Shown here one piece after another: positions 803-59,777 of a stretch of DNA of 64,000 nt. How positions within the stretch are numbered: position 1 is the stretch's first letter; each line of letters begins with the position of its first letter. The stretch spans positions 1 through 64,000 of the forward strand of contig NZ_VUKE01000004.1 in NCBI RefSeq assembly GCF_009193175.1, in the 5' to 3' direction. The stretch is from Georgenia ruanii (lineage in GTDB: Bacteria; Actinomycetota; Actinomycetes; Actinomycetales; Actinomycetaceae). The notes beneath the pieces are model-generated. The model did not search any database, was not told where the DNA came from, and saw only the letters and a list, made by a program, of their open reading frames with translations. Made by a program: the position numbers and the translations under genes.

Positions 803-2548
803 ATGTCACAGACCACACGCAAGACCGACGTCCTCGTCATCGGGTCGGGTGCCGCCGGCATCGCGACGGCCCTCAAGGCCGCGAAGGACGGCCACAGCGT
901 GATCGTCGTCGAGAAGGAGAAGTACCTCGGAGGTACCTCCGCGATCTCCGGTGGCTGGGCCTGGGTGCCCGGCAACAAGCAGGGGGTAGCGCAGGGTGAC
1001 ACCAGGCGGGAGGTGGAGACGTACCTCAAGGCCATCGCGCCCGACACCTACAACGCCGAGAGCGTGAAGACCTTCCTCGACGAGGTTCCCGAGGCGATGA
1101 ACTTCCTGGAGGACGAGGTCGGCATCGCCGTCCAGTACGCCGACAAGGCCCCGGACTACCAGATGGACCAGCCCGGCGCGAAGGAGTCCGGCCGGGCCGT
1201 GACGTTCCGGGCGGCCAACGCTCGCATGCTCGGTGAGGACCGCCTGCGGGTGCAGCCCTACCTCATGTCGTACACCGTCTTTGGCTACATGCCCGAGATC
1301 GGCAAGGACATCGGCACCTTCCTCAAGGCCAACCAGAAGCTCTCCGCGTTCGCGTACGCGACGGCGAAGGTGGGCCGGACCTGGGCCGAGACCGCACTGT
1401 TCAAGCGGTCCCTGACCCGTACGAACGGCAATGCGCTGATGACGCGCATGATCTCCGCCGCCCGCGACGCCGGGATCCAGATGTGGACGTCGACCCCCGC
1501 CCTCGAGATCCTCACGGATGCGGACGGCGCGGTCACTGGTGCCCGCGTCGGCGGCGACCACGCCGGTGTCATCGAGGCCCGTCTCGGCGTCGTGCTCGCC
1601 GCGGGCGGCTTCTCCGGCAACGCCGAGCTGCGCAAGAAGTACTTCCCGCACGACCCCAGCGGGGACAACCACCACACCCCCACCATCGGGCACACGGGAG
1701 ACTCGTTCCGCCTTGCCGAGCCGTTCGGCGGGCACATCGACGCCTCCCCGCACCAGCCCGCCTCATGGGGTCCGGTGACGGTGTTCAAGGGACTGCGCGG
1801 CCAGCGGAGGCTCTTCCCGCACCTCCGGGCCTTCGGGCTCCCTGGGCTGATCGCCGTCAACCGCGAGGGAAGGCGCTTTGCCAACGAGTCCCTCTCGTAC
1901 CACGACTACGGCGTCGAGATGATCAAGGACAACCAGGGCAAGGACAAGACGTTCGGCTGGATCGTCGCCGATCACACCGCGATGCACAAGTACGGCATCG
2001 GCTGGGCCAAGCCGTGGCCCTTCCCGCAGAAGCTGTTCACGTCGGCGGGCTACCTCCACAAGGCGGCCACGGTGCCCGAGCTCGCCCGGAAGATCGGCGT
2101 CCCGGCGGCCAACCTCCAGGCCACGCTCGCCGAGTTCAACACAGCCGCCGCCCGAGGCGAGGACCCGAAGTTTCACCGGGGCTCGAACAAGTTCCACCAC
2201 TTCAAGGGCGACGTGGAGCACAAGCCCAACCCGAACCTCGCGCCGATCGAGAAGGGCCCGTTCTACGCCGTCAAGATCGAGATGGGGGACCTGGGCACCT
2301 ACGCCGGTCTCGCCGTGAACTCCCGGTCCGAGGTCCTCGACGACCACGGCAACGGGGTGCGTGGCCTCTACGCCGTCGGAACTGCCGCGGTGAGCCCCTT
2401 CGGGGGCGGATACCCCGGCTACGGCGCGAACATCGGTCCGGCGCTCGTCTTCGGGTACAAGGTCGGCCGCGACATGGCCGCCCACGCCGCCGAGCGCTCG
2501 TCCGCTCGCGCGCCGGAGCTGGAGGTGGCCGATGCGCCGCGACGTTAG
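803..2548 (+). CDS. FAD-dependent oxidoreductase, KstD / fumarate-reductase flavoprotein family
   Basis: This 581-residue protein is a member of the FAD_binding_2 fold. It has the dinucleotide motif GSGAAG at residues 14-19, then an EKE...GGTSAISGG stretch (about 38-53) that contacts FAD. The C-terminal cap near residues 525-556 reads GGGYPGYGANIGPA, the pattern seen in 3-ketosteroid delta-1-dehydrogenases and related enzymes. Such proteins introduce or reduce a C=C bond next to a carbonyl. No signal peptide or heme motif is present, so it is cytosolic. Its length fits KstD (510-580). The start ATG 803 is preceded by AGAAGGA. It sits directly before the Liv-type importer genes, so it probably acts on the imported compound. 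Steroid specificity is not demonstrated; a cyclic ketone or aryl-alicyclic acid is equally possible. Confidence 0.82.
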   Translation: MSQTTRKTDVLVIGSGAAGIATALKAAKDGHSVIVVEKEKYLGGTSAISGGWAWVPGNKQGVAQGDTRREVETYLKAIAPDTYNAESVKTFLDEVPEAMNFLEDEVGIAVQYADKAPDYQMDQPGAKESGRAVTFRAANARMLGEDRLRVQPYLMSYTVFGYMPEIGKDIGTFLKANQKLSAFAYATAKVGRTWAETALFKRSLTRTNGNALMTRMISAARDAGIQMWTSTPALEILTDADGAVTGARVGGDHAGVIEARLGVVLAAGGFSGNAELRKKYFPHDPSGDNHHTPTIGHTGDSFRLAEPFGGHIDASPHQPASWGPVTVFKGLRGQRRLFPHLRAFGLPGLIAVNREGRRFANESLSYHDYGVEMIKDNQGKDKTFGWIVADHTAMHKYGIGWAKPWPFPQKLFTSAGYLHKAATVPELARKIGVPAANLQATLAEFNTAAARGEDPKFHRGSNKFHHFKGDVEHKPNPNLAPIEKGPFYAVKIEMGDLGTYAGLAVNSRSEVLDDHGNGVRGLYAVGTAAVSPFGGGYPGYGANIGPALVFGYKVGRDMAAHAAERSSARAPELEVADAPRR

Positions 2549-17178: not shown

Positions 17179-17277
17179 CCGCGCCAGCCCGGCCGGCGCA
17201 CCGCCCGGCGAGGATCACCGTGAGGCAGGACGGCGGCGGCGAGGGAGTGTCGGTGGCCCATGGCAGGATCGACTGAC

Positions 17278-18906
17278 ATGACGGACCCCCTTGTCGAGAC
17301 CACGTCGGCGGGAACCGACGGCGCCGCGGGCGGCTACGGGCCGTTCGTCTACCTCGGCGCGCCCAACGCTCCGCTGTACCGGCGCGTCATGCGGGCGCTG
17401 ATGGCGGCGAAGGAACGCTTCACGGTCCACGTGCGTCCGGAGGAGGTGTGCGCGGCGCTGCGCGCGGACGGCGGTGACCCCGTCGACGACGATGCGGTCG
17501 CCGAGGCGCTCGAGCGGCTGGCCCAGCCCGCGTGGGGGAACCTGCTCGCCTTTCCCGACTCGAGCCGGGTCACGGCGCTGGAGGACTTCTACCGGCGGCG
17601 CATCCTCTACCAGATGTCCCGCCAGGGCGAGGCCGCGGAGCGGGCGCTGGCGCAGTACGACGCCGTGCTCGGCACCCGCGGCGCCCTGCAGTCGGTGGCC
17701 CTGGAGGACATCGTCGCGCTGCTCACCAGCCTCCGCGACACCGTCGCCGCCCACGCGGCGGGCGAGGCGGTGGACGCGGCCCGGACGCACCAGACGCTGC
17801 GGAGCCTGCGCGACCGGTTCGTCGAGCTCGCCGAGAACGCCGTGGCGTTCATGGGGTCCATGCAGCGCACCATCGACCTTCACGACGCCGACGTCGAGGT
17901 CTTCCTGGCGTACAAGGAACAGCTCATCGAGTACCTGGAGCGGTTCATCAACGACCTGCTCACCCGGGGGGCCGCCATCGCGGACCTCCTCGCCGCCATC
18001 CCGGACGACGGCGTGGGGTTCCTCGCCGCCGTCGCCGCGGAGCGCGAGTCCGCCGACGCCGCCCCCGGCGAGGCCGACTCGGCGCGGGCGAGGGTGCGCG
18101 AGACCTGGCTGCGGCAGTGGTCGGGCCTGACGGACTGGTTCGTCAGCACCCCCGCCCGGGAGAGCGAGGCCAAGCTGCTGCGAGCGCGCGCCCGGGCCGC
18201 GATCCCGGCCCTGCTGGCCGTGGTGCGAGCCCTGCACGAGAGGGCCGGCGGCCGGACCGACCGGACCCAGGACTTCCTCACGCTGGCCAGGTGGTTCGCC
18301 GCGTTGCCCACCGACGCCGACCGCCACCGGTTGTGGCGTTCAGCCTTCGCCCTCGCTCCGGTACGGCACCTGAGCGTCACCGCCGCAACCGAGGAGGCGT
18401 GGGCCGCGGCCGAGCTGGGCACCACGACGCCGTGGGCGCTCGCGCCGCCCCTGGAGATCAGCCCTCAGCTGCGCCGGAGCGGCTCGTACGAGCGCCGCGG
18501 GAAGGCGGTCCGTGTCGCGGACCGGACCGCGGCCAAGCGCGTGCTGGCCGAGCGCGCCCGCCACGAGGCGGAGCAGACGGCCGAGGCGCGCCGGCGGATC
18601 CTCACCGACGGCCCACGGCCGCTCTCCGCCTTCGGTGAGCTGGACCCGGCGGCCTTCCGCCTCTTCCTCGGCCTGCTCGGCGACGCCCTGGCCGCCATGG
18701 GACCGCGGGCCACCACCGCCCAGGTGCACACCTCGGACGGCGAACTCACCGTCACCCTCACCCGCCTCCCGGGCGCGGGCGCCATGGTGATCACCACGCC
18801 CGACGGCGAGCTGTCGGGCCCGGACCACCTCGTCGACATCGCGTCCACCGTCGACCGGGTCGCGCCGAGCGCCGCGGCGGGCGAGCGGGTGGAGGTCTAC
18901 GCATGA
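17278..18906 (+). CDS. jetA: Wadjet type II protein JetA (DUF2397 / TIGR02677)
   Basis: This 542-residue protein is recognised by its FVYLGAPNAPLYRRVMRAL opening and its place as first gene of a DUF2397-DUF2398-SMC-Toprim set. In Wadjet systems JetA is the kleisin-like subunit that bridges the SMC-like ATPases, comparable to MukF/MksF. The sequence is mostly helical with no membrane segment. An upstream ATG 17260 would add six residues. I prefer 17278, 9 bases after CAGGAT, which could be either a weak Shine-Dalgarno or a -10 element. Its stop overlaps the jetB ATG. Family assignment is by memory of the conserved opening and gene order. Confidence 0.85.
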   Translation: MTDPLVETTSAGTDGAAGGYGPFVYLGAPNAPLYRRVMRALMAAKERFTVHVRPEEVCAALRADGGDPVDDDAVAEALERLAQPAWGNLLAFPDSSRVTALEDFYRRRILYQMSRQGEAAERALAQYDAVLGTRGALQSVALEDIVALLTSLRDTVAAHAAGEAVDAARTHQTLRSLRDRFVELAENAVAFMGSMQRTIDLHDADVEVFLAYKEQLIEYLERFINDLLTRGAAIADLLAAIPDDGVGFLAAVAAERESADAAPGEADSARARVRETWLRQWSGLTDWFVSTPARESEAKLLRARARAAIPALLAVVRALHERAGGRTDRTQDFLTLARWFAALPTDADRHRLWRSAFALAPVRHLSVTAATEEAWAAAELGTTTPWALAPPLEISPQLRRSGSYERRGKAVRVADRTAAKRVLAERARHEAEQTAEARRRILTDGPRPLSAFGELDPAAFRLFLGLLGDALAAMGPRATTAQVHTSDGELTVTLTRLPGAGAMVITTPDGELSGPDHLVDIASTVDRVAPSAAAGERVEVYA

Positions 18907-20150
18907 GCGGGATCGACCTGGGGCCGAGCATCTCCGGCGCGCTGGAGGCCCGGGAGGCCGAGGGCCGCGCCCGGGCGCTGCGGGCGCTGCTCGTCCGCCC
19001 CGTCCTCCGGGCCCAGACCGACGGAGAGCTGTTCCGGCTGGCGCGGCGGCACGCCGACGCGCTGCGGGCCTGGTTCGACCGGGAGACGGGCTGGCGCCTC
19101 GCCGTCGAGTCGCGAACCGTGCGCCTCCTGACCTCCTACGTCCCCCACGGCGCGACGGCGATCGCCGTCGGCGAACGCCACCCGGCCCGCGCCCGCAAGG
19201 GGGACCCGCCGTTCACCCGGCGCCGTTACGTCCTGCTCTGCCTGGCGCTGGCCGTGCTCGAGCGTTCCGACCCGCAGATCTCCCTCGGCCGCCTCGCGGA
19301 GGACGTCGTGCTGGCCGCGCGCCAGCCGGGCCTGGACGGCGTGGCGTTCACCCTGGCCGGCCGGGAGGAGCGCGCCGACCTGGTCGCCGCGATCCGGCTG
19401 CTGCTGGCCTACGGCGTGCTGGTCCGGGTGGCAGGCGACGAGGAGTCCTACGTCTCGGCCGGCGGCGACGCCCTGTACGACGTCGACCGTCGGGTGCTGG
19501 CCACGATGCTGTCGACCACCCACGGGCCCGGGCTCGTCGGAACCCGGCTGCCGTCCGACCCGACGATCGACCAGATCGAGGCCGCCCTGCACGAGCCGCC
19601 GCCGGCCTACACCGAGGAGGAGGCCACCAGGAGGCTGCGGCACGCCGTCACCCGCCGGCTGCTCTGCGACCCGGTCGTCTACTACGACGAGCTGCCCGAC
19701 GACGAGCGCGCCTACCTCGTCGGTCAGCGCGTCCAGCTCACCAACCGCCTCGCTGAGGCCACCGGTCTTGTCCCCGAGATGCGCGCGGAGGGGATCGCGC
19801 TGGTGGACGCGGACGACCAGCTCACCGACGTGCGCATGCCCGAGCAGGGCACCGACGGGCACGTGACCCTGCTGCTTGCCGAGCAGCTCGCCACAGGCTG
19901 CCACACCGACATCGCGTCGCTGCGGCGCCGGGTGCGGCGGCTCGCCAAGGAGCACGCCGCCTATTGGCGCAAGACCACCCAGGAACCGGGGGCGGAGAAC
20001 GCCCTCGTCGCCGACGCGCTCGACCGCCTGGTCGGGCTCGGTCTGGTCCGGGTCACCGGTGCGGGGCCCGAGGCCGTCGTCCACCCGCTGCCGGCCCTGC
20101 GGCGATTCGGCGTGGCCGCGCCGACCATCACGACCAGGAGAGCACGATGA
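18903..20150 (+). CDS. jetB: Wadjet type II protein JetB (DUF2398 / TIGR02678)
   Basis: This is the 415-residue second gene of the set. It begins with a helical region rich in Arg, then the conserved W-F-x-x-x-T-G-W-x-L (DRETGWRL near residue 60). The RRYVLLCLALAVLERSDPQISLG segment near residue 110 is typical of DUF2398. JetB is considered the KITE-type winged-helix partner of the kleisin and SMC heads, comparable to MukE. Both ends overlap neighbours by ATGA, so JetA, JetB and JetC should be made in fixed ratio. Confidence 0.85.
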   Translation: MSGIDLGPSISGALEAREAEGRARALRALLVRPVLRAQTDGELFRLARRHADALRAWFDRETGWRLAVESRTVRLLTSYVPHGATAIAVGERHPARARKGDPPFTRRRYVLLCLALAVLERSDPQISLGRLAEDVVLAARQPGLDGVAFTLAGREERADLVAAIRLLLAYGVLVRVAGDEESYVSAGGDALYDVDRRVLATMLSTTHGPGLVGTRLPSDPTIDQIEAALHEPPPAYTEEEATRRLRHAVTRRLLCDPVVYYDELPDDERAYLVGQRVQLTNRLAEATGLVPEMRAEGIALVDADDQLTDVRMPEQGTDGHVTLLLAEQLATGCHTDIASLRRRVRRLAKEHAAYWRKTTQEPGAENALVADALDRLVGLGLVRVTGAGPEAVVHPLPALRRFGVAAPTITTRRAR

Positions 20151-23100
20151 CCAGCCCCGACGACATCGGCGAGGCCGCCGTGGCGCACGAGGCGCGGCCC
20201 GACGGCGCGCTGCCGCGTCCCACCAACGAGCGCTGGCAGCCGCTGCGGCTCGGCCTCGTCGACCTGTTCTACTACGACGACGAGCAGTTCTGGTTCCACG
20301 ACGGACGCCTGCTCCTGCGCGGCAACAACGGCACCGGGAAGTCGAAGGTCCTCGCGCTGACCCTGCCCTTCCTGCTGGATGGCTCGATCGCGCCGCGGCG
20401 CGTGGAGCCGGACGCCGACCCCAAGAAGCGTATGGAGTGGAACCTGCTCCTGGGCGGCGCCCACCCGAGCTCGGAGCGCACCGGCTACTCGTGGGTCGAA
20501 TTCGGGCGCGTGGACGCCGAAGGCACCGAGCACTTCACCACCCTGGGCATCGGCCTCAAGGCCGCCGCGGGCCGCGGCATCGTGAAGACCTGGTACTTCA
20601 CGTCAACGCGACGTATCGGCGACCTGCGCCTCCTCGACGTCCACCGCACGGTGCTCAGCCAGGAACGTCTCCGTGAGGAGCTCACGTCCACCGGGTCCGG
20701 CCACGTCTACGGCACTCAGGAGGCCTACCGGCGGGCGGTGGACGAGGCGTTGTTCCGGCTGGGTGAGGAACGGTACGCCGCCCTCGTCGACCTGCTCATC
20801 CAGCTCCGCCAGCCCCAGCTGTCCAAGAGGCCCGACGAGAAGGCGCTCTCGGCGGCCCTGACCGAGGCCCTCGCCCCGCTGGACCAGGCCGTGATCGCCG
20901 ACGTCGCCGAGTCCTTCCGCTCCTTGGAGGACGAGCGCGCGGGGATCGCCGAGGCGAAGGACACGCTCCGGGCGGCGCAGGACTTCCTGCGGCACTATCG
21001 CGCTTATGCCCAGGTCGCCTCCCGCCGGCACACGACGGCGGTGCGGCTGGCCAACTCCGCCTACGAGCACGCCGGCCGGGAGCTGCGCGACGCCGAGGAG
21101 CAGCTCAGTGACGCCGCCGCCGACGTCGAGCTGCTCGCCGGGCGACAGACGGACGCCGCAGAGCGGCAGAGCCGGCTGCAGGGCCAGGAGCAGGCACTGC
21201 GCACGAGCCCGGAGATGCGCGACGCCGAGCGTCTCGACCAGGCCGAGCGCGAAGCCACCGAGAAGGAGCGGCAGCTCGCCGCCGCCGGGAGCGAGGCGGA
21301 GCAGGCGGCCGCAACGGTGCAGAAGGAGCGTGCGGAGGCCGACGCCGCGGCGCGTCGCCACGAGGAGCTGGCGGCCGAGGCCCAGCGCCACGAGGCGGCT
21401 GCCATCCGGCTCGCCGCGGCCGCCGGGCTGCAGGTGGAGCACCCCACTATCGCGCACGACGCCGACGCCGCCGGCCGGGCGCTGAGCCGCCGGCGCGAGC
21501 AGGTCGGCCATGTGCGCCGGCTGATCGATGCGGCCCAACGGGCCCGGTCGGAGGCCGACCGTGAGCAGCAGGTCCTCGATGGGGCGGAGAGCGAGGCGGC
21601 CGGCCGCGTCGAGGAGCTCGGCGCTGCACGCGTGGCGGTCGACGACGCCGTGTCGGCCTACGGCGCCGCGGTCCGGGAGCACGTGGGCGGCCTGGAAGCC
21701 CTCGTCCTCGACGCCGAGGTGGATGAGCTTGCCGACATGGCCGAGGAGTGGGCGCGCAGCATGTCGGGCGAACCGCCCGTGTCGGCCGCGCTCGACGTCG
21801 CCGTCGCGACGGCGCTCGACCGCATCGGCCGCGAGCGCGCCGAGGCCGAGCACACGGCGCAGCGGCTGGACCAGGAGCTTGCCGGCGTCCGGGTCGAGAT
21901 CGCCGCCCTGGAGGACGGGCACGACCCGGAGCCCCCGCCGGCCCCCGGGCGGGACCCTCGCGGCCGGGAGGGCCGGGCCGGCGCTCCGCTGTGGTGGCTG
22001 ACCGACTTCGCCGACGCCCTGCCGCACGCCGAGCAGGCCGGGGTCGAGGCCGCCCTGCAGTCCGCCGGGCTGCTGGACGCGTGGGTGTTTCCCGACGGCA
22101 CGGTGGCCGCCGAGGGCGACGTCGTCCTCGGCCCCACCGGACCGCAGCCGGCGGTCTCGCTGGCCGAGGTTCTGGTACCGGCCGCCGGGCCCGACGCCCC
22201 GGTCACGGCGGACGCGGTCAGAGCCGTCCTCGGCCGGATCGGGTGGGGAGAGGACCCGGGTGCCACCTGGTGGGTGGACGGCCACGGCCGCTGGGGCGCT
22301 GGGCCGGCGCGGGGCTCCTGGACCAAGGAGCGGGCCGAGTTCCTCGGCGCCGGCGCCCGCGAGGCGCACCGGCGCGAGCTGCTCGTCGCGCTCCACGCCC
22401 GGCTCGAGGACCTGGACCGTGAGCTCACCACGGCGCGTGATCGGGTGGCGGAGGCCGACCGTCACGCGGAGCAGGTGCGGCTCGAGCGCGCCGGTTACCC
22501 GGTCCGGCTCGAGCGCGAGCTCGGCTCGGCGCACGCGCGCGCCGCCACGGCCCAGCGGGAGCTCGAGCGCGCCCAGGACAAGGTCGCAGCGGCGCAGGAG
22601 GCCTGGGAGCGTGCCGCCGAGGCGGCCACCCGGGCGACCGAGGATCTCATCGACCAGGCCAGGCAGCTCGGCGTCGGTGCCACCGCCGCCGAGACCGAGG
22701 AGGCCCTGAGCGCCGTGACCTCCTACGAGGTGGGGCTCGTCGAGGCCCGGCGAGCGGCCCGCGCCGCCGCAGACGCGGCGAGCGCCCGCGAGCAGGCGGC
22801 CGATCGCGCCGGCAAAGCGGCCGAGCTCCTGGCGCGGCGCGAGACAGAGCACCGTGACCTGCGGTCCCGCGCCGCCGCCCTGCGCGCACGGTACGAGGCG
22901 CTGCACGCCACCGTCGGGGTGTCGGTCGCCGAGCTGCAGGACCGGCTCGGCGCGACCACCGCCGCGCTGGAGGAGGTGAGGCGCGAGCTCCAAGGGATCG
23001 CGAAGGACCAGCTCGCCGCCGCGGCGCGCCGCGGCAACCTGGAGGCGCACGTCGGTGGCCTCACGGAGCGTCGCGAGGAGGCCGGGTCGAGGCGCCAGGG

Positions 23101-24277
23101 CACCATCGACGCGCTGCGTGCGTTCGCCGAGACCGGACTGCCGCGAGTCGCCCTGCCCGACCTGCCCCTCCCGGCGGCGGAGGAGCCCGAGGGATGGAGT
23201 CTCACCGCCGCCCTCGGTCTGTCCCGCACGGCGGAGCAGCGGCTCCACGACATCGACGAGTCCGACGGCGCATGGCGCCGCGCCCAGCAGCGGGTCTCCG
23301 GCGCGGCGACCGAGCTGACGGCGCAGATGAGCCGGCACGGGCACACGGCCTTCGTCGAGCAGCGGAGCGAGGTGCTGGTGGTGCGGGTGCGCTATCTCCA
23401 CGAGGAGGTCGACGTCGATCGGCTCGCGGAGCGGCTGGCCGAGGACGTCGCAGATCGCGAGCGCCTGCTCAGCGCGCGCGAGCGCGAGATCCTCGAGAAC
23501 CACCTCGTCAACGAGGTGGCCGGTCACCTGCACGAGCTGCTGCTCACCGCCGAGGAACAGATCGACCGGATGAACCGCGAGCTGGCCGACCGCAAGACCT
23601 CGACCGGGATGCAGCTGCGGATGAGGTGGCGCGAGCGTGGCGACGGTCCCGCCGGGCTGGCGGCGGCCCGGGACCTCATGGTCCGCTCCGACGCCACCTG
23701 GACTGCTGAGGACCGCGCCGCGATCGGGGACTTCCTGCAGGCGCGGATCGCCGAGGTTCGCCAGGCCGACCCGACCGGCGGCTGGCAGGAGCACCTGGAG
23801 CAGGCGCTCGACTATCGGCAGTGGCACACCTTCGTCGTCGAACGGTGGCAGCACGGGACGTGGCGCTCGGCGTCCGGCCCGGCCTCGGGCGGCGAGCGGG
23901 TGCTGTCCGTCTCCGTGCCGCTGTTCGCCGCCGCCTCGGCGCACTACAACTCGGCCGGTGCCCACGCCCCGCGGCTCATCCTGCTCGACGAGGCCTTCGC
24001 CGGGGTGGACGACGACTCTCGGGCCAAGTCGATGGGCCTGCTGGCGACCTTCGACCTCGACGTGGTGCTGACCAGCGAGCGCGAGTGGGGCTGCTACCCC
24101 CAGGTTCCTGGGCTCGCGATCGCGCAGCTCTCCCGCGTGGAGGGGGTGGACGCCGTGGGCGTCACCCGCTGGCAGTGGGACGGCCGACGACGCCACCGCG
24201 ACGCGGAGATCGACCCGGCGGCACGAGCCGGTGGGGAGGCCGCGAGCGCGCCTGACGAGATGACCTTGTTCGGATGA
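20147..24277 (+). CDS. jetC: Wadjet type II SMC-like ATPase JetC (TIGR02680)
   Basis: This large 1376-residue protein has the SMC/MukB/Rad50 layout. The N-terminal half-ATPase carries Walker A G-N-N-G-T-G-K-S at residues 59-66. A long Ala/Glu/Arg coiled coil spans about 280-1200, with a globular centre near 590-720 that would be the hinge. The C-terminal half has the signature SGGER near residue 1248 and Walker B LILLDEAFAGVD near 1277-1288. In Wadjet the SMC-like motor extrudes DNA loops and recognises small closed circular DNA. Its start overlaps jetB and its stop overlaps jetD by 4 bp. Confidence 0.92.
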   Translation: MTSPDDIGEAAVAHEARPDGALPRPTNERWQPLRLGLVDLFYYDDEQFWFHDGRLLLRGNNGTGKSKVLALTLPFLLDGSIAPRRVEPDADPKKRMEWNLLLGGAHPSSERTGYSWVEFGRVDAEGTEHFTTLGIGLKAAAGRGIVKTWYFTSTRRIGDLRLLDVHRTVLSQERLREELTSTGSGHVYGTQEAYRRAVDEALFRLGEERYAALVDLLIQLRQPQLSKRPDEKALSAALTEALAPLDQAVIADVAESFRSLEDERAGIAEAKDTLRAAQDFLRHYRAYAQVASRRHTTAVRLANSAYEHAGRELRDAEEQLSDAAADVELLAGRQTDAAERQSRLQGQEQALRTSPEMRDAERLDQAEREATEKERQLAAAGSEAEQAAATVQKERAEADAAARRHEELAAEAQRHEAAAIRLAAAAGLQVEHPTIAHDADAAGRALSRRREQVGHVRRLIDAAQRARSEADREQQVLDGAESEAAGRVEELGAARVAVDDAVSAYGAAVREHVGGLEALVLDAEVDELADMAEEWARSMSGEPPVSAALDVAVATALDRIGRERAEAEHTAQRLDQELAGVRVEIAALEDGHDPEPPPAPGRDPRGREGRAGAPLWWLTDFADALPHAEQAGVEAALQSAGLLDAWVFPDGTVAAEGDVVLGPTGPQPAVSLAEVLVPAAGPDAPVTADAVRAVLGRIGWGEDPGATWWVDGHGRWGAGPARGSWTKERAEFLGAGAREAHRRELLVALHARLEDLDRELTTARDRVAEADRHAEQVRLERAGYPVRLERELGSAHARAATAQRELERAQDKVAAAQEAWERAAEAATRATEDLIDQARQLGVGATAAETEEALSAVTSYEVGLVEARRAARAAADAASAREQAADRAGKAAELLARRETEHRDLRSRAAALRARYEALHATVGVSVAELQDRLGATTAALEEVRRELQGIAKDQLAAAARRGNLEAHVGGLTERREEAGSRRQGTIDALRAFAETGLPRVALPDLPLPAAEEPEGWSLTAALGLSRTAEQRLHDIDESDGAWRRAQQRVSGAATELTAQMSRHGHTAFVEQRSEVLVVRVRYLHEEVDVDRLAERLAEDVADRERLLSAREREILENHLVNEVAGHLHELLLTAEEQIDRMNRELADRKTSTGMQLRMRWRERGDGPAGLAAARDLMVRSDATWTAEDRAAIGDFLQARIAEVRQADPTGGWQEHLEQALDYRQWHTFVVERWQHGTWRSASGPASGGERVLSVSVPLFAAASAHYNSAGAHAPRLILLDEAFAGVDDDSRAKSMGLLATFDLDVVLTSEREWGCYPQVPGLAIAQLSRVEGVDAVGVTRWQWDGRRRHRDAEIDPAARAGGEAASAPDEMTLFG

Positions 24278-25662
24278 CGGAGATGACGTCGGGAACTCCG
24301 GGAAGGGCAGGCGGTGGTCAGGCCGCGCTGGACCGGCTGCTGGGCGTACCCGAGATGGCGTGGCTCGTCGCCCGGGTCCGGGCGCGGATCCTCACCGCCG
24401 GGGACGAGCCTCTTCGTGGCGTCGTCCAGCTGAATGACCCCACCGACGGGCAGCGGGCCGCGGTCGTGCGGCTCGTGGGACGGCCGAAGCGCGCCGGGTC
24501 CGCGCTGCGGCTCGACCTCGCCGTCGTCGAGGAGGTCCTGCGTCGCGGTCCATGGCCCGCCGGTCTCGCCGACGCCGTCGAGACGCTGAGTGGCCCCGTG
24601 GTGGATCGCGCGGCCGAGCGGGCGCGGGAGGCTGCCGCGTGGGACGCGGCCCGCGACGGCCTGGCACCCGTGCTGGACCGGTTCCCCGGGCTCGCCGAGT
24701 GGTGGGAGAGCTGGTGCGCGACCGGTGGGCTCAAGCGTGCCGCGGGTGCCGAGCATGCCCGGAGCGCTGCCGCGTCGATACCCGAGGTTGCTGCGGACCT
24801 GGTCAGGAGGGTGGTCGCGGTGGTCGAGGTCTTGCCGGCCACCGCGCAGCCGTTGGCCATCCTGGCGCGGAAGGTGGTGGGAGATGCTCACGGCCTGGAT
24901 GCGTCCCGGCCGCTCGGCCGGCTCGCCGCGGCTGTGGTCAGGGCCGCGTTCTTGCCCGGTGCGGCAGACGGGGAGTGGTCGACCCGGGATGTGTGGGCCG
25001 CCGCCGGTGTTGTCATGTCGAATGTGGCCTCCACGGCTCTGTGCTTGGGGGTTCCCGGCGTAGATCCGGTTGACACGGACGGTGGCGATGAGAAGTCGCG
25101 GACGGCTACGGCGGCTGCGCTGGAGGCGATGCTGGCGGCGCGCATGCCCGTGGTGCTGACCCTTGACCAGGTGCGGTCCGGCGGGGTGCGGACGCTGCCA
25201 CGCGGCATCGTCATCCACGTGTGTGAGAACCCGACGGTCGTCGAGGTCGTGGCCGAGCGGTGGGCGCGGGCGGCCGACCTCTCCGGCGGCGTCGGACCGG
25301 TGCTGGTGTGCACGTCGGGCCAGCCGAGCACAGCGGTGATCGAGCTGCTGCGGACGCTCGCCGCCGACGGCGCAGAGGTCCGGTATCACGGCGACTTCGA
25401 CTGGGCCGGGCTTCGGATCGCCTGGTCGCTGAGGACGCACGTGGCATGGGTGCCATGGCGCTACACGACCGCCGACTACCGCGAGGCCGTGCAGAACGGG
25501 AGGCCGGCGCTCCGTCTGAAAGGGAGTCCAGCGCAGTGCCCGTGGGATCCGGAGCTGACGGCCGCGATGACTGAGTGCGGGCTCGCCGTCGAGGAGGAGG
25601 CGGTGGCGAACCTGCTCGCGGCGGACGTGCTGGCCCGGTCTTCGGCCCCGTGGCCGAGCTGA
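24274..25662 (+). CDS. jetD: Wadjet type II nuclease subunit JetD (DUF2399, Toprim)
   Basis: This 462-residue protein has a C-terminal Toprim-like domain. Glu318 sits in the motif C-E-N-P-T-V-V-E, a small VLVCTSGQPS strand-loop follows, and Asp374 and Asp376 lie in Y-H-G-D-F-D-W-A-G. Together these supply the Glu and DxD metal ligands seen in topoisomerase VI-type Toprim enzymes. In Wadjet, JetD cleaves the plasmid once JetABC has reeled it in. All catalytic residues are intact, so the system looks functional. It is the last gene, 49 bp from the convergent histidine kinase. Confidence 0.9.
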   Translation: MTEMTSGTPGRAGGGQAALDRLLGVPEMAWLVARVRARILTAGDEPLRGVVQLNDPTDGQRAAVVRLVGRPKRAGSALRLDLAVVEEVLRRGPWPAGLADAVETLSGPVVDRAAERAREAAAWDAARDGLAPVLDRFPGLAEWWESWCATGGLKRAAGAEHARSAAASIPEVAADLVRRVVAVVEVLPATAQPLAILARKVVGDAHGLDASRPLGRLAAAVVRAAFLPGAADGEWSTRDVWAAAGVVMSNVASTALCLGVPGVDPVDTDGGDEKSRTATAAALEAMLAARMPVVLTLDQVRSGGVRTLPRGIVIHVCENPTVVEVVAERWARAADLSGGVGPVLVCTSGQPSTAVIELLRTLAADGAEVRYHGDFDWAGLRIAWSLRTHVAWVPWRYTTADYREAVQNGRPALRLKGSPAQCPWDPELTAAMTECGLAVEEEAVANLLAADVLARSSAPWPS

Positions 25663-25711
25663 CGATTCACGCGCCCTCATCGGACCATGGCCGCAGCACC
25701 GCGGGCGCCGG

Positions 25712-27439
25712 TCACCCGAGCGGCAGGAGCGCCACGACCCGGCCGCCGCTCGGCGTCGGGCCGGCCAGCAGGCGCCCGCCGAGCTCCTCGGCCCGTTCCT
25801 GCATCGAGGTCAGCCCGATCCCGGGCACCCATTCCCGGTCCACGGAACCGGCGTCGTCGTCGGTGACCGCCACCTGCAGATCGTCGCCCTCCCTGGTGAC
25901 GGTCACGGTCACCGTCCGCGAGGCCGTGTGCCGCGCGGCGTTGGTCAGGGCCTCGGTCACGATCCGGTAGGCCGCGACCTCCGCCGCCGCCGGAAGCTCG
26001 TCGGCGTCGGGCCCGACCTGGAGGACGATCTCGAGGTCGGCGCGGCGCAGCACATGGGCCTGCTGTGCGATCGCTCCCCGCAGGCCCAGCTGGTCGAGCG
26101 TGGGCGGGCGGATGTCGTAGACGATGCGGCGGATGTCGTCGATGGCGCGGCTCGCCTCGCGCCGGAGCAGGCGCAGGAGCTCGGCGACCTGCTCCGAGCC
26201 GCCCGCGGCGAGGTTGGTGACGGCGTCGACGGTGAAGGCGATGCCGGCCAGGGTGGGGCCGAGCCCGTCGTGGAGCTCGCGGCGCAGCCGGCGCCGTTCC
26301 TCCTCGACCGCGCCGCGGATCGCGGCCCGCGACTGCGAGAGCTCGGCGGCGAGCGCCTCGGCCCGGCGGGTCTGGCCCAACAGACGGGCGACGAGGGCGA
26401 GGACCTCGGCGTCGGCGCGCGAGAGCTGCAGGTCCCCGGGGCGGAGGCCCACGACGAGGTCGTCCTCGGCGTGGTCGAGGGGGAAGCGACGGACGTGCGG
26501 GGTCGGGTCGCCGCTGCACGCGACGTCCGCACCGGCGGCGTGGATCGCGGCGTAGGGCAGGACCAGGGCCTCCCGGATGCGGGCGAGCACGTCGCCCGGG
26601 TCGGTCAGCGGGCCGCCCGCGACCCGCGCGGCGGCGGCGAGCGGGTCGGGGCGGCGCCCGAAGAGGAGCTCGTCGACCGTGGAGTGGAGCAGGCGCCGCA
26701 GGGGGCGATACGCCACGGCGCAGCAGCAGGCGACGATGGCCTGGACCCCCACGGCGGGGTCCGTGCCGGTCGTGAGGGCCAGCGTGCTGGCGACCGTCAC
26801 GTAGAGCGCGAGGCACGCCGTCCAGGTGACGCCGACGACCGTCGCCTCGACGACGATCCCGCGGGCGTCGACGACGTCGGGACGCCGCACGCCGACCACC
26901 ATGCACACCGCGGGGACCCCGAGGGCGACGAGCGTGAGGGCCTGGGTCGTCGGCGTGCCCTCGACCACGATCGACGTGGCGAAGGCGACGACGGCGGGGA
27001 CGCCCAGGCCGATGACGAGCCAGACGAGCGGGCGGCGCCCGTCCGGGGTGAGCCGCTCGAAGCGCCACCACAGGTGGACGATGACGAGACCGATGACCCC
27101 CGCCGCCGCGGGCACGATCCCTGCGTGCTCGGGGACGGCGGCGGCGACGCCGGCGGCGAGGACGAGCAGCGCGCCGGCGGCGCGGTCGACGTGGCGCGAG
27201 AGCGTGCCGGGGCGGGGATAGGCGAGCACCGCGAGCGGGCCGAGGACCAGGCCGGCGGTGAGCTGGGCGGCGAGCGCGACGCCGTCGACGCCCTCGAGGG
27301 CCACGCCGACGCCGATGGTGACCGCCGCGGCGGCGAGGAGGACGGCGCCGCGCCGGACTCCGCTGCGCGCGAGGAGGACGGCGCACCCGAGCCAGACCGC
27401 CGCCATGACGACGAGGCCGACGTGGTGGACCGGGTTCAT
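25712..27439 (-). CDS. NarL-family sensor histidine kinase
   Basis: This 575-residue membrane kinase has about eight N-terminal hydrophobic segments (residues 1-250) and a linker region. The HisKA_3 dimerisation domain carries the phospho-acceptor His390 in R-E-L-H-D-G-L-G. The C-terminal HATPase domain has the N-box EALTNAARH and the G-box GIGLTSMQERA. There is no large extracellular loop, so it may sense membrane or internal signals. It overlaps the response-regulator stop by 4 bp (ATGA), so the pair is co-translated. Confidence 0.9.
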   Translation of the reverse strand: MNPVHHVGLVVMAAVWLGCAVLLARSGVRRGAVLLAAAAVTIGVGVALEGVDGVALAAQLTAGLVLGPLAVLAYPRPGTLSRHVDRAAGALLVLAAGVAAAVPEHAGIVPAAAGVIGLVIVHLWWRFERLTPDGRRPLVWLVIGLGVPAVVAFATSIVVEGTPTTQALTLVALGVPAVCMVVGVRRPDVVDARGIVVEATVVGVTWTACLALYVTVASTLALTTGTDPAVGVQAIVACCCAVAYRPLRRLLHSTVDELLFGRRPDPLAAAARVAGGPLTDPGDVLARIREALVLPYAAIHAAGADVACSGDPTPHVRRFPLDHAEDDLVVGLRPGDLQLSRADAEVLALVARLLGQTRRAEALAAELSQSRAAIRGAVEEERRRLRRELHDGLGPTLAGIAFTVDAVTNLAAGGSEQVAELLRLLRREASRAIDDIRRIVYDIRPPTLDQLGLRGAIAQQAHVLRRADLEIVLQVGPDADELPAAAEVAAYRIVTEALTNAARHTASRTVTVTVTREGDDLQVAVTDDDAGSVDREWVPGIGLTSMQERAEELGGRLLAGPTPSGGRVVALLPLG

Positions 27440-28086
27440 GTGCCGAAGCCGTGCTCGCGCGCCCGGATCATCGCCTCGGTCCGGTCGGTGACTTCCAGCT
27501 TCGCGAAGATGCTGGTGAGGTGGTTGCTCACGGTCTTCGGGGAGAGGTGGAGCGCCGCGGCGATGGCGGCGGTCCGCAGCCCCGAGGCCAGCCCCTCGAG
27601 GATCTCCCGCTCCCGCGCGGTCAGCTCGGGGAAGGCGTCCGGCTCGCGCGGCGGGAGGGCAGCGGGGAAGAGCTCGAGGACGCGCGCCGCGATGCCCGGC
27701 CCGAACACCAGCTGGCCCGCCGCGACCGACCGGATCGCGGCGGCGATCTCGTCCTGGTCCGCGCCCTTGAGGACGTAGCCGCGGGCCCCGGCGCGCATCG
27801 CGAGGAGGACCGTGGCGTCGTCGTCGAACATCGTCAGCATGAGCACCCGTGCGTCGGGGCATGCCGCGTGGATCGCCCGGGTCGCCTCGACGCCGCCCAT
27901 CCCGGGCATGGCGATGTCCATCAGCACGACGTCGGGCCGGGTCAGCTGGGCCTCCCGCACCGCCGCCTGGCCGTCCTCGGCGACGCCGACCACCGTGAGG
28001 TCGAGCGTGCCGAGCAGGACACGCAGCCCCTCGCGGACGACGGCGTGGTCGTCGACGACGAGGACGCGGATGGTCACCCCGCTCAT
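27436..28086 (-). CDS. NarL/LuxR-family response regulator
   Basis: This 216-residue regulator has a receiver domain with acidic pocket D12-D13, phospho-acceptor Asp57 (VLMDIAMPG), the T-M switch and Lys in Y-V-L-K-G. A C-terminal LuxR-type helix-turn-helix opens LTAREREILEGLASG and has recognition helix LSPKTVSNHLTSIFAKL. It is the partner of the kinase at 25712. It is divergent from two membrane-protein genes across a 173-bp gap, so those genes are plausible targets. Confidence 0.92.
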   Translation of the reverse strand: MSGVTIRVLVVDDHAVVREGLRVLLGTLDLTVVGVAEDGQAAVREAQLTRPDVVLMDIAMPGMGGVEATRAIHAACPDARVLMLTMFDDDATVLLAMRAGARGYVLKGADQDEIAAAIRSVAAGQLVFGPGIAARVLELFPAALPPREPDAFPELTAREREILEGLASGLRTAAIAAALHLSPKTVSNHLTSIFAKLEVTDRTEAMIRAREHGFGT

Positions 28087-28259
28087 GATGCCGGGGCGGA
28101 GGTTCCCGCGTTCCGGGAATGCTTTCCCCTGAGTCTGGGTGGACGTGCCGGCGGGTTCGGGAACGCTCGCTCTGCCGTCCGGAAGGTCTGGTGGGCCACG
28201 CTCGGAACACAGGGCGCCTCCGCCGCGGAGGCCGCCGGGGCACGTGGAGGAGGAGCATC

Positions 28260-28634
28260 ATGGTCGTGACCACTCGTCAGCGCATCGGGCTGGGCATCGC
28301 GCTCGCCCTGTCCGTCGCAAACCTGGCGGGCCTCGGGTCGCCGACGCCGGCGGGGGAGACCGGGCCGCCGCTCGTGGTCCTCGTCGTCGGAGCGCTGCTC
28401 GGTGTCCTGGGCATCGTCGGGTCCGTCGTCGGGTGGCGGTCCGGGAACCGCAAGGTGCTGCGCGTCGTCGCTGGCGCCGTGATCGTGATGGCGCTGCTCG
28501 CGACCCCCGCCTTCTTCTTCCCCGTGCCCGCCGGGGTCAAGGCGCTCGTCGGGGTCGTCACCCTGGTGTCGATCGCAGCCGTGGTCCTCGTGCTCTCTCC
28601 CGCCCGTGTGCCCGCCGAGGAGGTGCGGTCGTGA
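28260..28634 (+). CDS. Small membrane protein, function unknown
   Basis: This 124-residue protein has four hydrophobic segments (about 8-26, 37-58, 66-84 and 92-112) and no catalytic motif that I recognise. ATG 28260 follows a very strong GGAGGAG site. It overlaps the next membrane-protein gene by GTGA. It lies opposite the two-component system, which suggests it is controlled by it, possibly as part of an envelope-stress response. Confidence 0.7.
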   Translation: MVVTTRQRIGLGIALALSVANLAGLGSPTPAGETGPPLVVLVVGALLGVLGIVGSVVGWRSGNRKVLRVVAGAVIVMALLATPAFFFPVPAGVKALVGVVTLVSIAAVVLVLSPARVPAEEVRS

Positions 28635-29374
28635 GCGCCCGGCGGGGAGGTGCGACGGTGCGCGCCCGCCGGCTGCGGGACCTGGTGGTCGTCGTCGGGC
28701 TCGTCCTCGCCCCGTGGTGCTGGGTCGTGGCGAACACGGCGTACATGGTCGCGATCCGCGACGGGGGGAGCGACGAGGACGGGGCCGCGTCGCTCGCGCT
28801 CGCGGCGGAATACCCGGGGCTGATGCGCGTGGCGGCCGTCGCGGTCATTCTCGGGGGCATCCTCGTGGTCCCGGCCGTCGCGGGCTTCTACCGCCTCGCG
28901 GGCGACCGGCTCGCCGTGGTCATCGGCGGCGGGCTCATGGCGGCCGGGTACATCTGCTACGGCGGGGTGGGGCCGACCACCTTGCTCCAGATCGCGATGG
29001 CCGAGCACGGCGGCCCGGTCGCCGACTTCGCCGCGGCGATCGACGCGGGTATGGCCGACCCCTGGGGGATGTGGCCGTTCCTCCTCTTCGTCCTGGGCAA
29101 CCTGGGCGGGACGCTGGTGCTCGCGATCGGGCTGTGGCGTGGCCGCGTCGCACCGACCTGGGTCCCGGTCGCGCTGATGTGCTGGCCGCTGCTCCATGTG
29201 CTCGGTCTGATCTTCATGCGCAACGAGGTGCCGCAGGTGGTCGGGGCGATCATCCAGGCGGCCGGGTTCGCTGCCTGTGCGCGGCTCGTCCACCGGGCCG
29301 GCCGGGACGCGCGGCCGGGACCGTCCAGGCAGCTCGCGGCGCAGGCGCCCACGGTGGCCGGACCCGCCGTGTGA
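28631..29374 (+). CDS. Multi-pass membrane protein, function unknown
   Basis: This 247-residue protein has about seven hydrophobic segments and short basic ends. It carries no recognised transporter signature. The start GTG 28631 overlaps the stop of the small membrane protein before it, so the two are co-translated. A hairpin between its stop and the convergent MFS gene probably ends both transcripts. Confidence 0.72.
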   Translation: MSARRGGATVRARRLRDLVVVVGLVLAPWCWVVANTAYMVAIRDGGSDEDGAASLALAAEYPGLMRVAAVAVILGGILVVPAVAGFYRLAGDRLAVVIGGGLMAAGYICYGGVGPTTLLQIAMAEHGGPVADFAAAIDAGMADPWGMWPFLLFVLGNLGGTLVLAIGLWRGRVAPTWVPVALMCWPLLHVLGLIFMRNEVPQVVGAIIQAAGFAACARLVHRAGRDARPGPSRQLAAQAPTVAGPAV

Positions 29375-29404
29375 GAGGGACGGCTCGTGCGGCGAGCGAG
29401 AGCG

Positions 29405-29438
29405 GCCGCCCACGCCGGTCCTTCCCGGCGTGAGCGGC
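29405..29438. terminator. Bidirectional terminator-like hairpin
   Basis: CACGCCGG at 29411-29418 pairs with CCGGCGTG at 29425-29432. After one mismatch the stem continues with GCCGC/GCGGC to 29405 and 29438. It fills the gap between two convergent genes. Confidence 0.65.
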
Positions 29439-59613: not shown

Positions 59614-59685
59614 TCCGCCCTGGTGTAACGGCAGCACGCAGGCCTTTGGTGCCTTGCAGTCCGGGTTCGAATCCTGGGGGCGGAG
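59614..59685 (+). tRNA. tRNA-Gln (TTG)
   Basis: The acceptor stem TCCGCCC at 59614 pairs with GGGCGGA at 59678-59684, and 59685 G is the discriminator. The D arm GTGTAACGGCAGCAC, an anticodon arm with loop CTTTGGT (anticodon TTG), and the T arm with GGTTCGAATCC are all present. No CCA is encoded. It lies upstream of glmU, a common actinobacterial position. Confidence 0.93.
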
Positions 59686-59777
59686 CCGGAGCTCTCCGCC
59701 TGCTGGGCCTCCGGGGCCGGAGCTCTCCGCCTGCTGGGCCTCCGGGGCCGGAGTGCTCCGCCTGCTGGGCCTCCGGA
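59685..59777 (+). repeat. Three 31-bp tandem repeats abutting tRNA-Gln
   Basis: Units start at 59685, 59716 and 59747, each beginning GCCGGAG and ending TGCTGGGCCTCCGG. The first two are identical; the third has three changes. Each can form a CCGGAG/CTCCGG hairpin. They start at the last base of the tRNA. Confidence 0.85.

What the first reader, a model, noticed from the sequence alone, without database searches (positions are those of the whole stretch)
17278..25662. Complete type II Wadjet (JetABCD) anti-plasmid operon
Four genes in the canonical order DUF2397, DUF2398, SMC-like ATPase, Toprim nuclease are joined by 4-bp ATGA overlaps. Walker A, signature and Walker B of JetC and the Glu318/Asp374/Asp376 metal triad of JetD are intact, so the system looks active. 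Wadjet systems are described, but type II is much less studied than type I. This copy has a JetA start with unusual context and an Arg/Ala-rich JetC coiled coil.
Basis: partly seen in the sequence, partly recalled or inferred. Interest (0 to 1): 0.78.

Follow-up and report, generated by a model that had tools for sequence, protein, structure and literature searches.

The report
Complete type II Wadjet anti-plasmid operon
This piece of a Georgenia bacterium's chromosome carries an intact four-gene system of a known kind that is expected to find and cut small circular plasmids, and the same genome holds a second copy of its DNA motor that has no cutting gene.

Summary
Window 17278-25662 (+) encodes JetA, JetB, JetC and JetD of a type II Wadjet: all four match their curated families over cut-off, the three junctions are ATGA overlaps, and JetC ATPase motifs and JetD E318/D374/D376 are intact. 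The two "unusual" features are ordinary. It is a new member of a known kind, on a 12.2-kb stretch absent from Georgenia thermotolerans.

The stronger lead lies outside the window. The same genome has a second type II JetABC (C35) without JetD. It is syntenic in 4 of 9 Georgenia genomes and under purifying selection; three of those four have no DUF2399 or PF09983 protein at all. In 394 Actinomycetes-class genomes, 50 of 109 type II JetC loci over cut-off had no DUF2399 within 10 kb. In a tree of 44 chosen JetC proteins the D-less ones cluster, with intact ATPase motifs. A nuclease-free derivative is in print for the Mks lineage (P. aeruginosa MksBEF); my searches found none for type II.

The parts
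17278..18906 (+). JetA, kleisin-like subunit (DUF2397 / TIGR02677), 542 aa; start ATG 17278
   Evidence: start conserved in G004
17265..17268 (+). AGGA, likely ribosome-binding site of JetA, 9 nt before the ATG
   Evidence: sequence; AAGGAT at the same place in G004
18903..20150 (+). JetB, KITE-like subunit (DUF2398 / TIGR02678), 415 aa
20147..24277 (+). JetC, SMC-like ATPase (TIGR02680), 1376 aa; Walker A 59-66, signature from 1247, Walker B from 1277
24274..25662 (+). JetD, putative Toprim nuclease (DUF3323 + DUF2399 / TIGR02679), 462 aa; E318, D374, D376, E441/E442
17186..29423 (.). 12.2-kb stretch absent from Georgenia thermotolerans (G002): jetABCD, a two-component pair and two small genes; most likely an insertion
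   Evidence: window homology to L098 stops near 17185 and resumes near 29424; about 50 bp lie between the two matches in G002
25712..28086 (-). sensor-histidine-kinase-like gene (25712-27439) and NarL/UvrY-like response regulator (27436-28086) on the same stretch; link to jet genes unknown
   Evidence: matches under the families' cut-offs; no match to the kinase at E<=1e-60 in the other 8 genomes of the genus

Best explanation
The operon encodes a complete, probably active type II Wadjet (JetABCD). JetC is the SMC ATPase, JetA the kleisin and JetB the KITE subunit. As a dimer of motor units they would load on DNA and extrude loops. On a small closed circle extrusion runs to completion and the stalled complex presents DNA to the JetD nuclease, which makes a double-strand cut; linear and very large DNA escape. 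Shown here: gene content, order, overlapping genes, intact catalytic motifs, purifying selection between two species, and a matching empty site in a relative. Inferred from published type I and N. vireti type II work: extrusion, size sensing and cutting. Inferred here: that the stretch was gained by this genome rather than lost by the relative.
For: Curated family matches for all four proteins. ATGA overlaps. Motifs intact and conserved. dN/dS against the G004 operon: A 0.163, B 0.195, C 0.323, D 0.248. JetA and JetC match chains of 9qe0 at 6.6e-27 and 1e-80. Empty site in G. thermotolerans and a homologous operon (80.6% nucleotide identity over 8,061 columns) at another place in G004. Published mechanism seen as passages in PMC10586767, PMC12287153, PMC10123090 and PMC12647877.
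Against: No activity can be shown here. The JetD fold was not confirmed: the single-sequence model is poor, and neither JetD alone nor its profile finds a solved relative (one chance-level match each). JetB matches its solved counterpart only at E 0.27.
Confidence: 0.95

Rival explanations
1. The operon is intact but acts mainly on something other than plasmids, such as phage or chromosomal DNA.
For: No target was tested. A kinase and response regulator lie on the same stretch, which could couple expression to a stress.
Against: All four best family matches are to the type II Wadjet set. 19 of 20 plasmid records with a JetC relative are longer than 140 kb, which fits a system that spares large replicons; plasmid sizes in general were not used as a control and JetD was not sought in those records.
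Confidence: 0.1
2. The operon is a decayed or silent island remnant.
For: JetD (measured from 24355) has lower third-position G+C (0.865) than JetA/B/C (0.93-0.95), and no promoter was tested.
Against: All four frames are open, catalytic residues are intact, and dN/dS against G004 is 0.16-0.32.
Confidence: 0.05
3. The two SMC systems of this genome interact: the D-less JetABC' on C35 borrows the JetD of this operon.
For: Both are type II, and G000 holds only one DUF2399 protein.
Against: JetABC' is equally kept in G002, G003 and G008, which have no DUF2399 and no PF09983 protein. JetA/B/C of the two loci are only 26-33% identical.
Confidence: 0.05

Closest known systems
Type II Wadjet (JetABCD; TIGR02677/TIGR02678/TIGR02680/TIGR02679)
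   Same: All four families over cut-off, order A-B-C-D, overlapping genes, intact ATPase and nuclease residues
   Different: Nothing in architecture; a new sequence in Georgenia on a stretch absent from its nearest sampled relative
PDB 9qe0/9qe1 JetABC (taken to be the N. vireti type II complex; inferred from ref. 30 of PMC12647877)
   Same: JetA and JetC align over most of JetA and over parts of JetC
   Different: Distant; JetB match is weak, and JetD has no match among solved chains
Type I Wadjet / MksBEFG (C. glutamicum, P. aeruginosa PA14)
   Same: SMC, kleisin, KITE and Toprim-nuclease logic (PMC10586767 and PMC10123090, passages)
   Different: Different protein families; no PF09983 (JetD_C) protein in any of 9 Georgenia genomes, while the control C. 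glutamicum rings
P. [quoted passage not shown]
   Same: Parallel to the D-less JetABC' of C35: SMC, kleisin and KITE without a nuclease
   Different: Belongs to the Mks lineage; JetABC' is type II by TIGR02677/78/80

Membership tests
Type II Wadjet (window operon) | All four subunits of the type II families present | tested here: met
Type II Wadjet (window operon) | Contiguous operon in order A-B-C-D | tested here: met
   ATGA at 18903, 20147, 24274
Type II Wadjet (window operon) | Intact SMC ATPase motifs in JetC | tested here: met
Type II Wadjet (window operon) | Metal-binding acidic residues of JetD | tested here: met
   E318, D374, D376, E441, E442 invariant in 11 of 11; their role is by analogy with type I JetD/MksG
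Type II Wadjet (window operon) | Toprim fold of JetD | tested here: inconclusive
   DUF2399 match and conserved E...DxD motif, but model pLDDT 40.7 and no solved relative by sequence
Type II Wadjet (window operon) | ATP-dependent cleavage of small circular DNA, plasmid restriction in cells | not testable with these tools
   needs experiment
Type II Wadjet (second locus, G000:C35) | JetA, JetB and JetC of type II | tested here: met
   TIGR02677 180.6, TIGR02678 162.4, TIGR02680 707.5 bits, all over cut-off
Type II Wadjet (second locus, G000:C35) | JetD nuclease in the operon | tested here: not met
   no TIGR02679 or DUF2399 near it; neighbours are an ABC transporter with FecCD permease and an alpha-amylase-family gene. 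So it is not filed as a Wadjet
MksBEF-like nuclease-free condensin (second locus) | SMC, kleisin and KITE without nuclease | tested here: met
MksBEF-like nuclease-free condensin (second locus) | Role in chromosome organisation | not testable with these tools
   needs experiment

The most novel reading that the evidence does not exclude
Type II JetABC complexes without JetD are stable lineages in Actinomycetes, kept for a job that does not cut DNA (chromosome folding or segregation, or silencing of foreign circles), as MksBEF is in the Mks lineage. The window's genome holds one of these as a resident gene set beside a nuclease-armed Wadjet on an insertion, so the defence and non-defence uses of one SMC family coexist in one cell and can be compared directly. 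In one family (f32) the complex has gone further: the kleisin is cut to its C-terminal part and a second SMC-like ATPase gene follows.
Probability: 0.45. Interest if true: 0.65.

Novelty: new member of a known kind. Interest (0 to 1): 0.4.

Why it matters
As a Wadjet the operon is one more copy of a described system, and it could lower plasmid uptake in this Georgenia species. The comparison it led to matters more. The total-extrusion model implies that JetABC also works on the chromosome, which PMC10586767 (2023; [quoted passage not shown] Type II JetABC lineages that live without JetD would make that question testable in the type II family. They also warn that JetC or TIGR02680 alone does not mark an anti-plasmid system: 50 of 109 loci over cut-off had no DUF2399 within 10 kb.

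Tried and rejected
Unusual JetA start: rejected. Unusual JetC composition: rejected. Walker B Asp in place of Glu as a mark of D-less JetC: rejected, because JetD-bearing L034, L084, L088 and L089 have Asp too, and D-less L064, L065 and others have Glu. JetD lost from view at contig ends: unlikely for the fetched loci, since 29 of 31 have at least 2.5 kb on both sides (exceptions L076 and L097); not checked for the other 21 D-less loci, and G193:C164 is probably a false one, as that genome's JetC and DUF2399 are scattered over short contigs. JetD replaced by a type I/III JetD: PF09983 in 0 of 9 Georgenia genomes; not tested beyond the genus. A constant replacement effector: none common to all contexts. 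JetD fold by AlphaFold2: single sequence only, unusable. JetD relatives in viral contigs: 14 stretches matched a pattern, none confirmed. A repeat search around the insertion showed only weak repeats and no convincing insertion ends (lists capped).

Limits. For one search I entered only the rows over the cut-off. 12 listed rows under it were left out, and seven of the loci they mark (G376:C30, G107:C62, G169:C19, G127:C1, G239:C1, G256:C66, G302:C20) do have DUF2399 close by, so the true share of D-less loci is somewhat lower than 50 of 109. The 10 weakest DUF2399 rows were also left out; none lies within 10 kb of a D-less locus. D-less means no DUF2399 match (E<=0.001) within 10 kb on the same contig. 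My JetD profile was rebuilt from its own hits, so the 7 controls are not independent of it. In L080 no JetA was recognised. The tree is a quick one of 44 chosen rows (31 D-less, 13 with JetD), with a long-branch warning for the Georgenia D-less group and L064; it cannot tell gain from loss. The literature claim rests on searches, seen as listings, and on passages of four papers (PMC12647877, PMC12287153, PMC10586767, PMC10123090); subscription papers, including the 2025 type II structure paper, were not held.

Full report
What is there. Window 17278-25662 (+) holds four genes joined by ATGA overlaps. NCBIfam gives TIGR02677, TIGR02678, TIGR02680 and TIGR02679 over cut-off. Pfam gives DUF2397, DUF2398, SbcC_Walker_B and DUF3323 + DUF2399. 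PADLOC names them JetA2, JetB2, JetC2 and JetD2. JetD E318, D374, D376, E441 and E442 are invariant in 11 of 11 JetD proteins aligned. JetC carries GNNGTGKS, SGGERVLS and LILLDEAF. Solved relatives exist: JetA and JetC match 9qe0/9qe1, JetB only weakly, JetD not at all.

What is ordinary. The JetA start at 17278 has AGGA nine bases upstream and is conserved in G004, whereas the in-frame ATG at 17260 is not. JetC alanine and arginine contents (18.2%, 11.3%) match the means of 43 JetC proteins (18.1%, 11.5%).

Where it came from. In G. thermotolerans the betaine-type transporter gene that precedes jetA lies next to the orthologue of the MFS gene at window 29439; homology stops near 17185 and resumes near 29424. 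So jetABCD sits on a 12.2-kb stretch that this relative lacks, with a kinase, a response regulator and two small genes without a Pfam match. The kinase has no match at E<=1e-60 in the other 8 genomes of the genus. In G003 the transporter is followed by other genes. G004 carries a homologous operon (JetA and JetB 86%, JetC 74%, JetD 75% identical) at another place; apart from the operon (window 17229-25635) nothing of window 10000-32000 matched there. That points to gain by insertion, though two genomes cannot prove the direction. dN/dS between the two operons is 0.16-0.32. G005 and G006 carry a distant JetABCD of their own.

How it most likely works. By the published model (passages of PMC10586767 and PMC12287153), JetABC extrudes DNA; on a small circle the two motors converge and JetD cuts. 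A type II complex from N. vireti cleaves naked circular DNA but could not bypass obstacles, which its authors connect with a missing hinge channel (PMC12647877, passages). None of this was tested here for Georgenia.

A second type II complex in the same genome. TIGR02680 rings twice in G000: the window, and C35:147365-151594. The second locus has JetA, JetB and JetC over cut-off and no JetD: TIGR02679 and DUF2399 ring only in the window operon. Its neighbours are an ABC transporter with FecCD permease and an alpha-amylase-family gene, which I take for treZ. The same arrangement occurs in G002 (split over two contigs), G003 and G008, so in 4 of 9 genomes. In G004 the two flanks adjoin without it; in G001 they are some 530 bp apart with a small called ORF; G007 has a less similar transporter there, and G005 and G006 have other genes. 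G002, G003 and G008 have no DUF2399 protein, and none of the nine genomes has PF09983. JetABC' is 79-98% identical among these species and 25-33% to the window proteins. Its dN/dS is 0.13-0.28 for JetA' (6 pairs), 0.07-0.25 for JetB' (6) and 0.24-0.26 for JetC' (3), against 0.25-0.35 for two flanking sugar genes (6 pairs). It is a kept gene set, not a ruin.

It is not a local oddity. In 394 Actinomycetes-class genomes, 109 TIGR02680 loci over cut-off were found in 81 genomes: 59 with DUF2399 within 10 kb and 50 without (41 in f32, 4 in f33, 4 in f22, 1 in f1, which is G000). 39 genomes hold a D-less locus, 21 of these with no DUF2399 among the rows I entered, and 15 genomes hold both kinds. 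At least seven further loci under the cut-off do have DUF2399 nearby, so the D-less share is somewhat lower when weaker JetC are counted. I fetched 28 of the other 49 D-less loci and 7 controls with JetD. My own JetD profile, rebuilt from its hits, found JetD in 7 of 7 controls and in none of 31 D-less loci (28 plus 3 Georgenia), 29 of which have at least 2.5 kb on both sides. In a quick tree of 44 JetC the D label needs 4 changes against a shuffled mean of 11.5, with 0 of 500 shuffles as low. All 44 keep Walker A, a signature of the S-x-G-E type and Walker B. The tree cannot tell gain from loss of JetD.

Literature. PMC10586767 states that P. [quoted passage not shown] A search for phrases of JetD absence found only that paper. 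The listings of searches showed no title or abstract start on JetD-less type II; I read passages of four papers only. Most subscription papers are not held, so novelty of the D-less type II lineages is likely but not shown.

Verdict. The window operon is a sound new member of a known kind. The D-less paralogue and its wide kin are the lead worth following.

Noticed in passing
G000:C35:147365-154619 (L006:7354-14686, -): A second, JetD-less type II JetABC, syntenic in 4 of 9 Georgenia genomes and under purifying selection; in G004 the two flanking genes adjoin without it.
   Followed up: yes
L063, L066, L069-L073, L091, L092, L094-L097 (family f32): In 13 D-less loci the JetA homologue matches only positions about 318-524 of the 531-position kleisin profile; the frame closes within 24 residues upstream in 12 of 13 (91 in L097). 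A gene of about 700 aa follows JetC in all 13; the two scanned (L063, L070) are SMC_N/AAA_23 ATPases. L070 also has two dehydratase-like genes and murB nearby.
   Followed up: partly
L065, L075, L076, L077 (family f33): A large gene (1301-1556 aa, cut by the locus end) lies 62-122 bp upstream of a JetD-less JetABC; the one scanned (L065) is a DEAD-box helicase with an MrfA Zn-binding domain.
   Followed up: partly
L088 and L089 (G311, G212): Type II operons with JetD but in the order C-A-B-D instead of A-B-C-D.
   Followed up: no
window 25712-28086 (-): Histidine-kinase-like gene and response regulator on the same 12.2-kb stretch as jetABCD; the kinase has no match at E<=1e-60 in the other 8 Georgenia genomes.
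   Followed up: partly
plasmid records H1-H20: 19 of 20 plasmid records with a JetC relative are longer than 140 kb (one, of 11.85 Mb, is of chromosome size); the exception is 72,694 bp. Not compared with plasmid sizes in general, and JetD not sought.
   Followed up: no
window 2156-2241 (-) and 59614-59687 (+): ARAGORN calls two tRNA-Gln(ttg) genes; the first lies antisense inside a 581-aa reading frame (803-2548) and may be false.
   Followed up: no
L030:13611-15104 (G004): The JetD of G004 has a Gly/Ser/Thr-rich insertion between the conserved Glu and the DxD motif.
   Followed up: no
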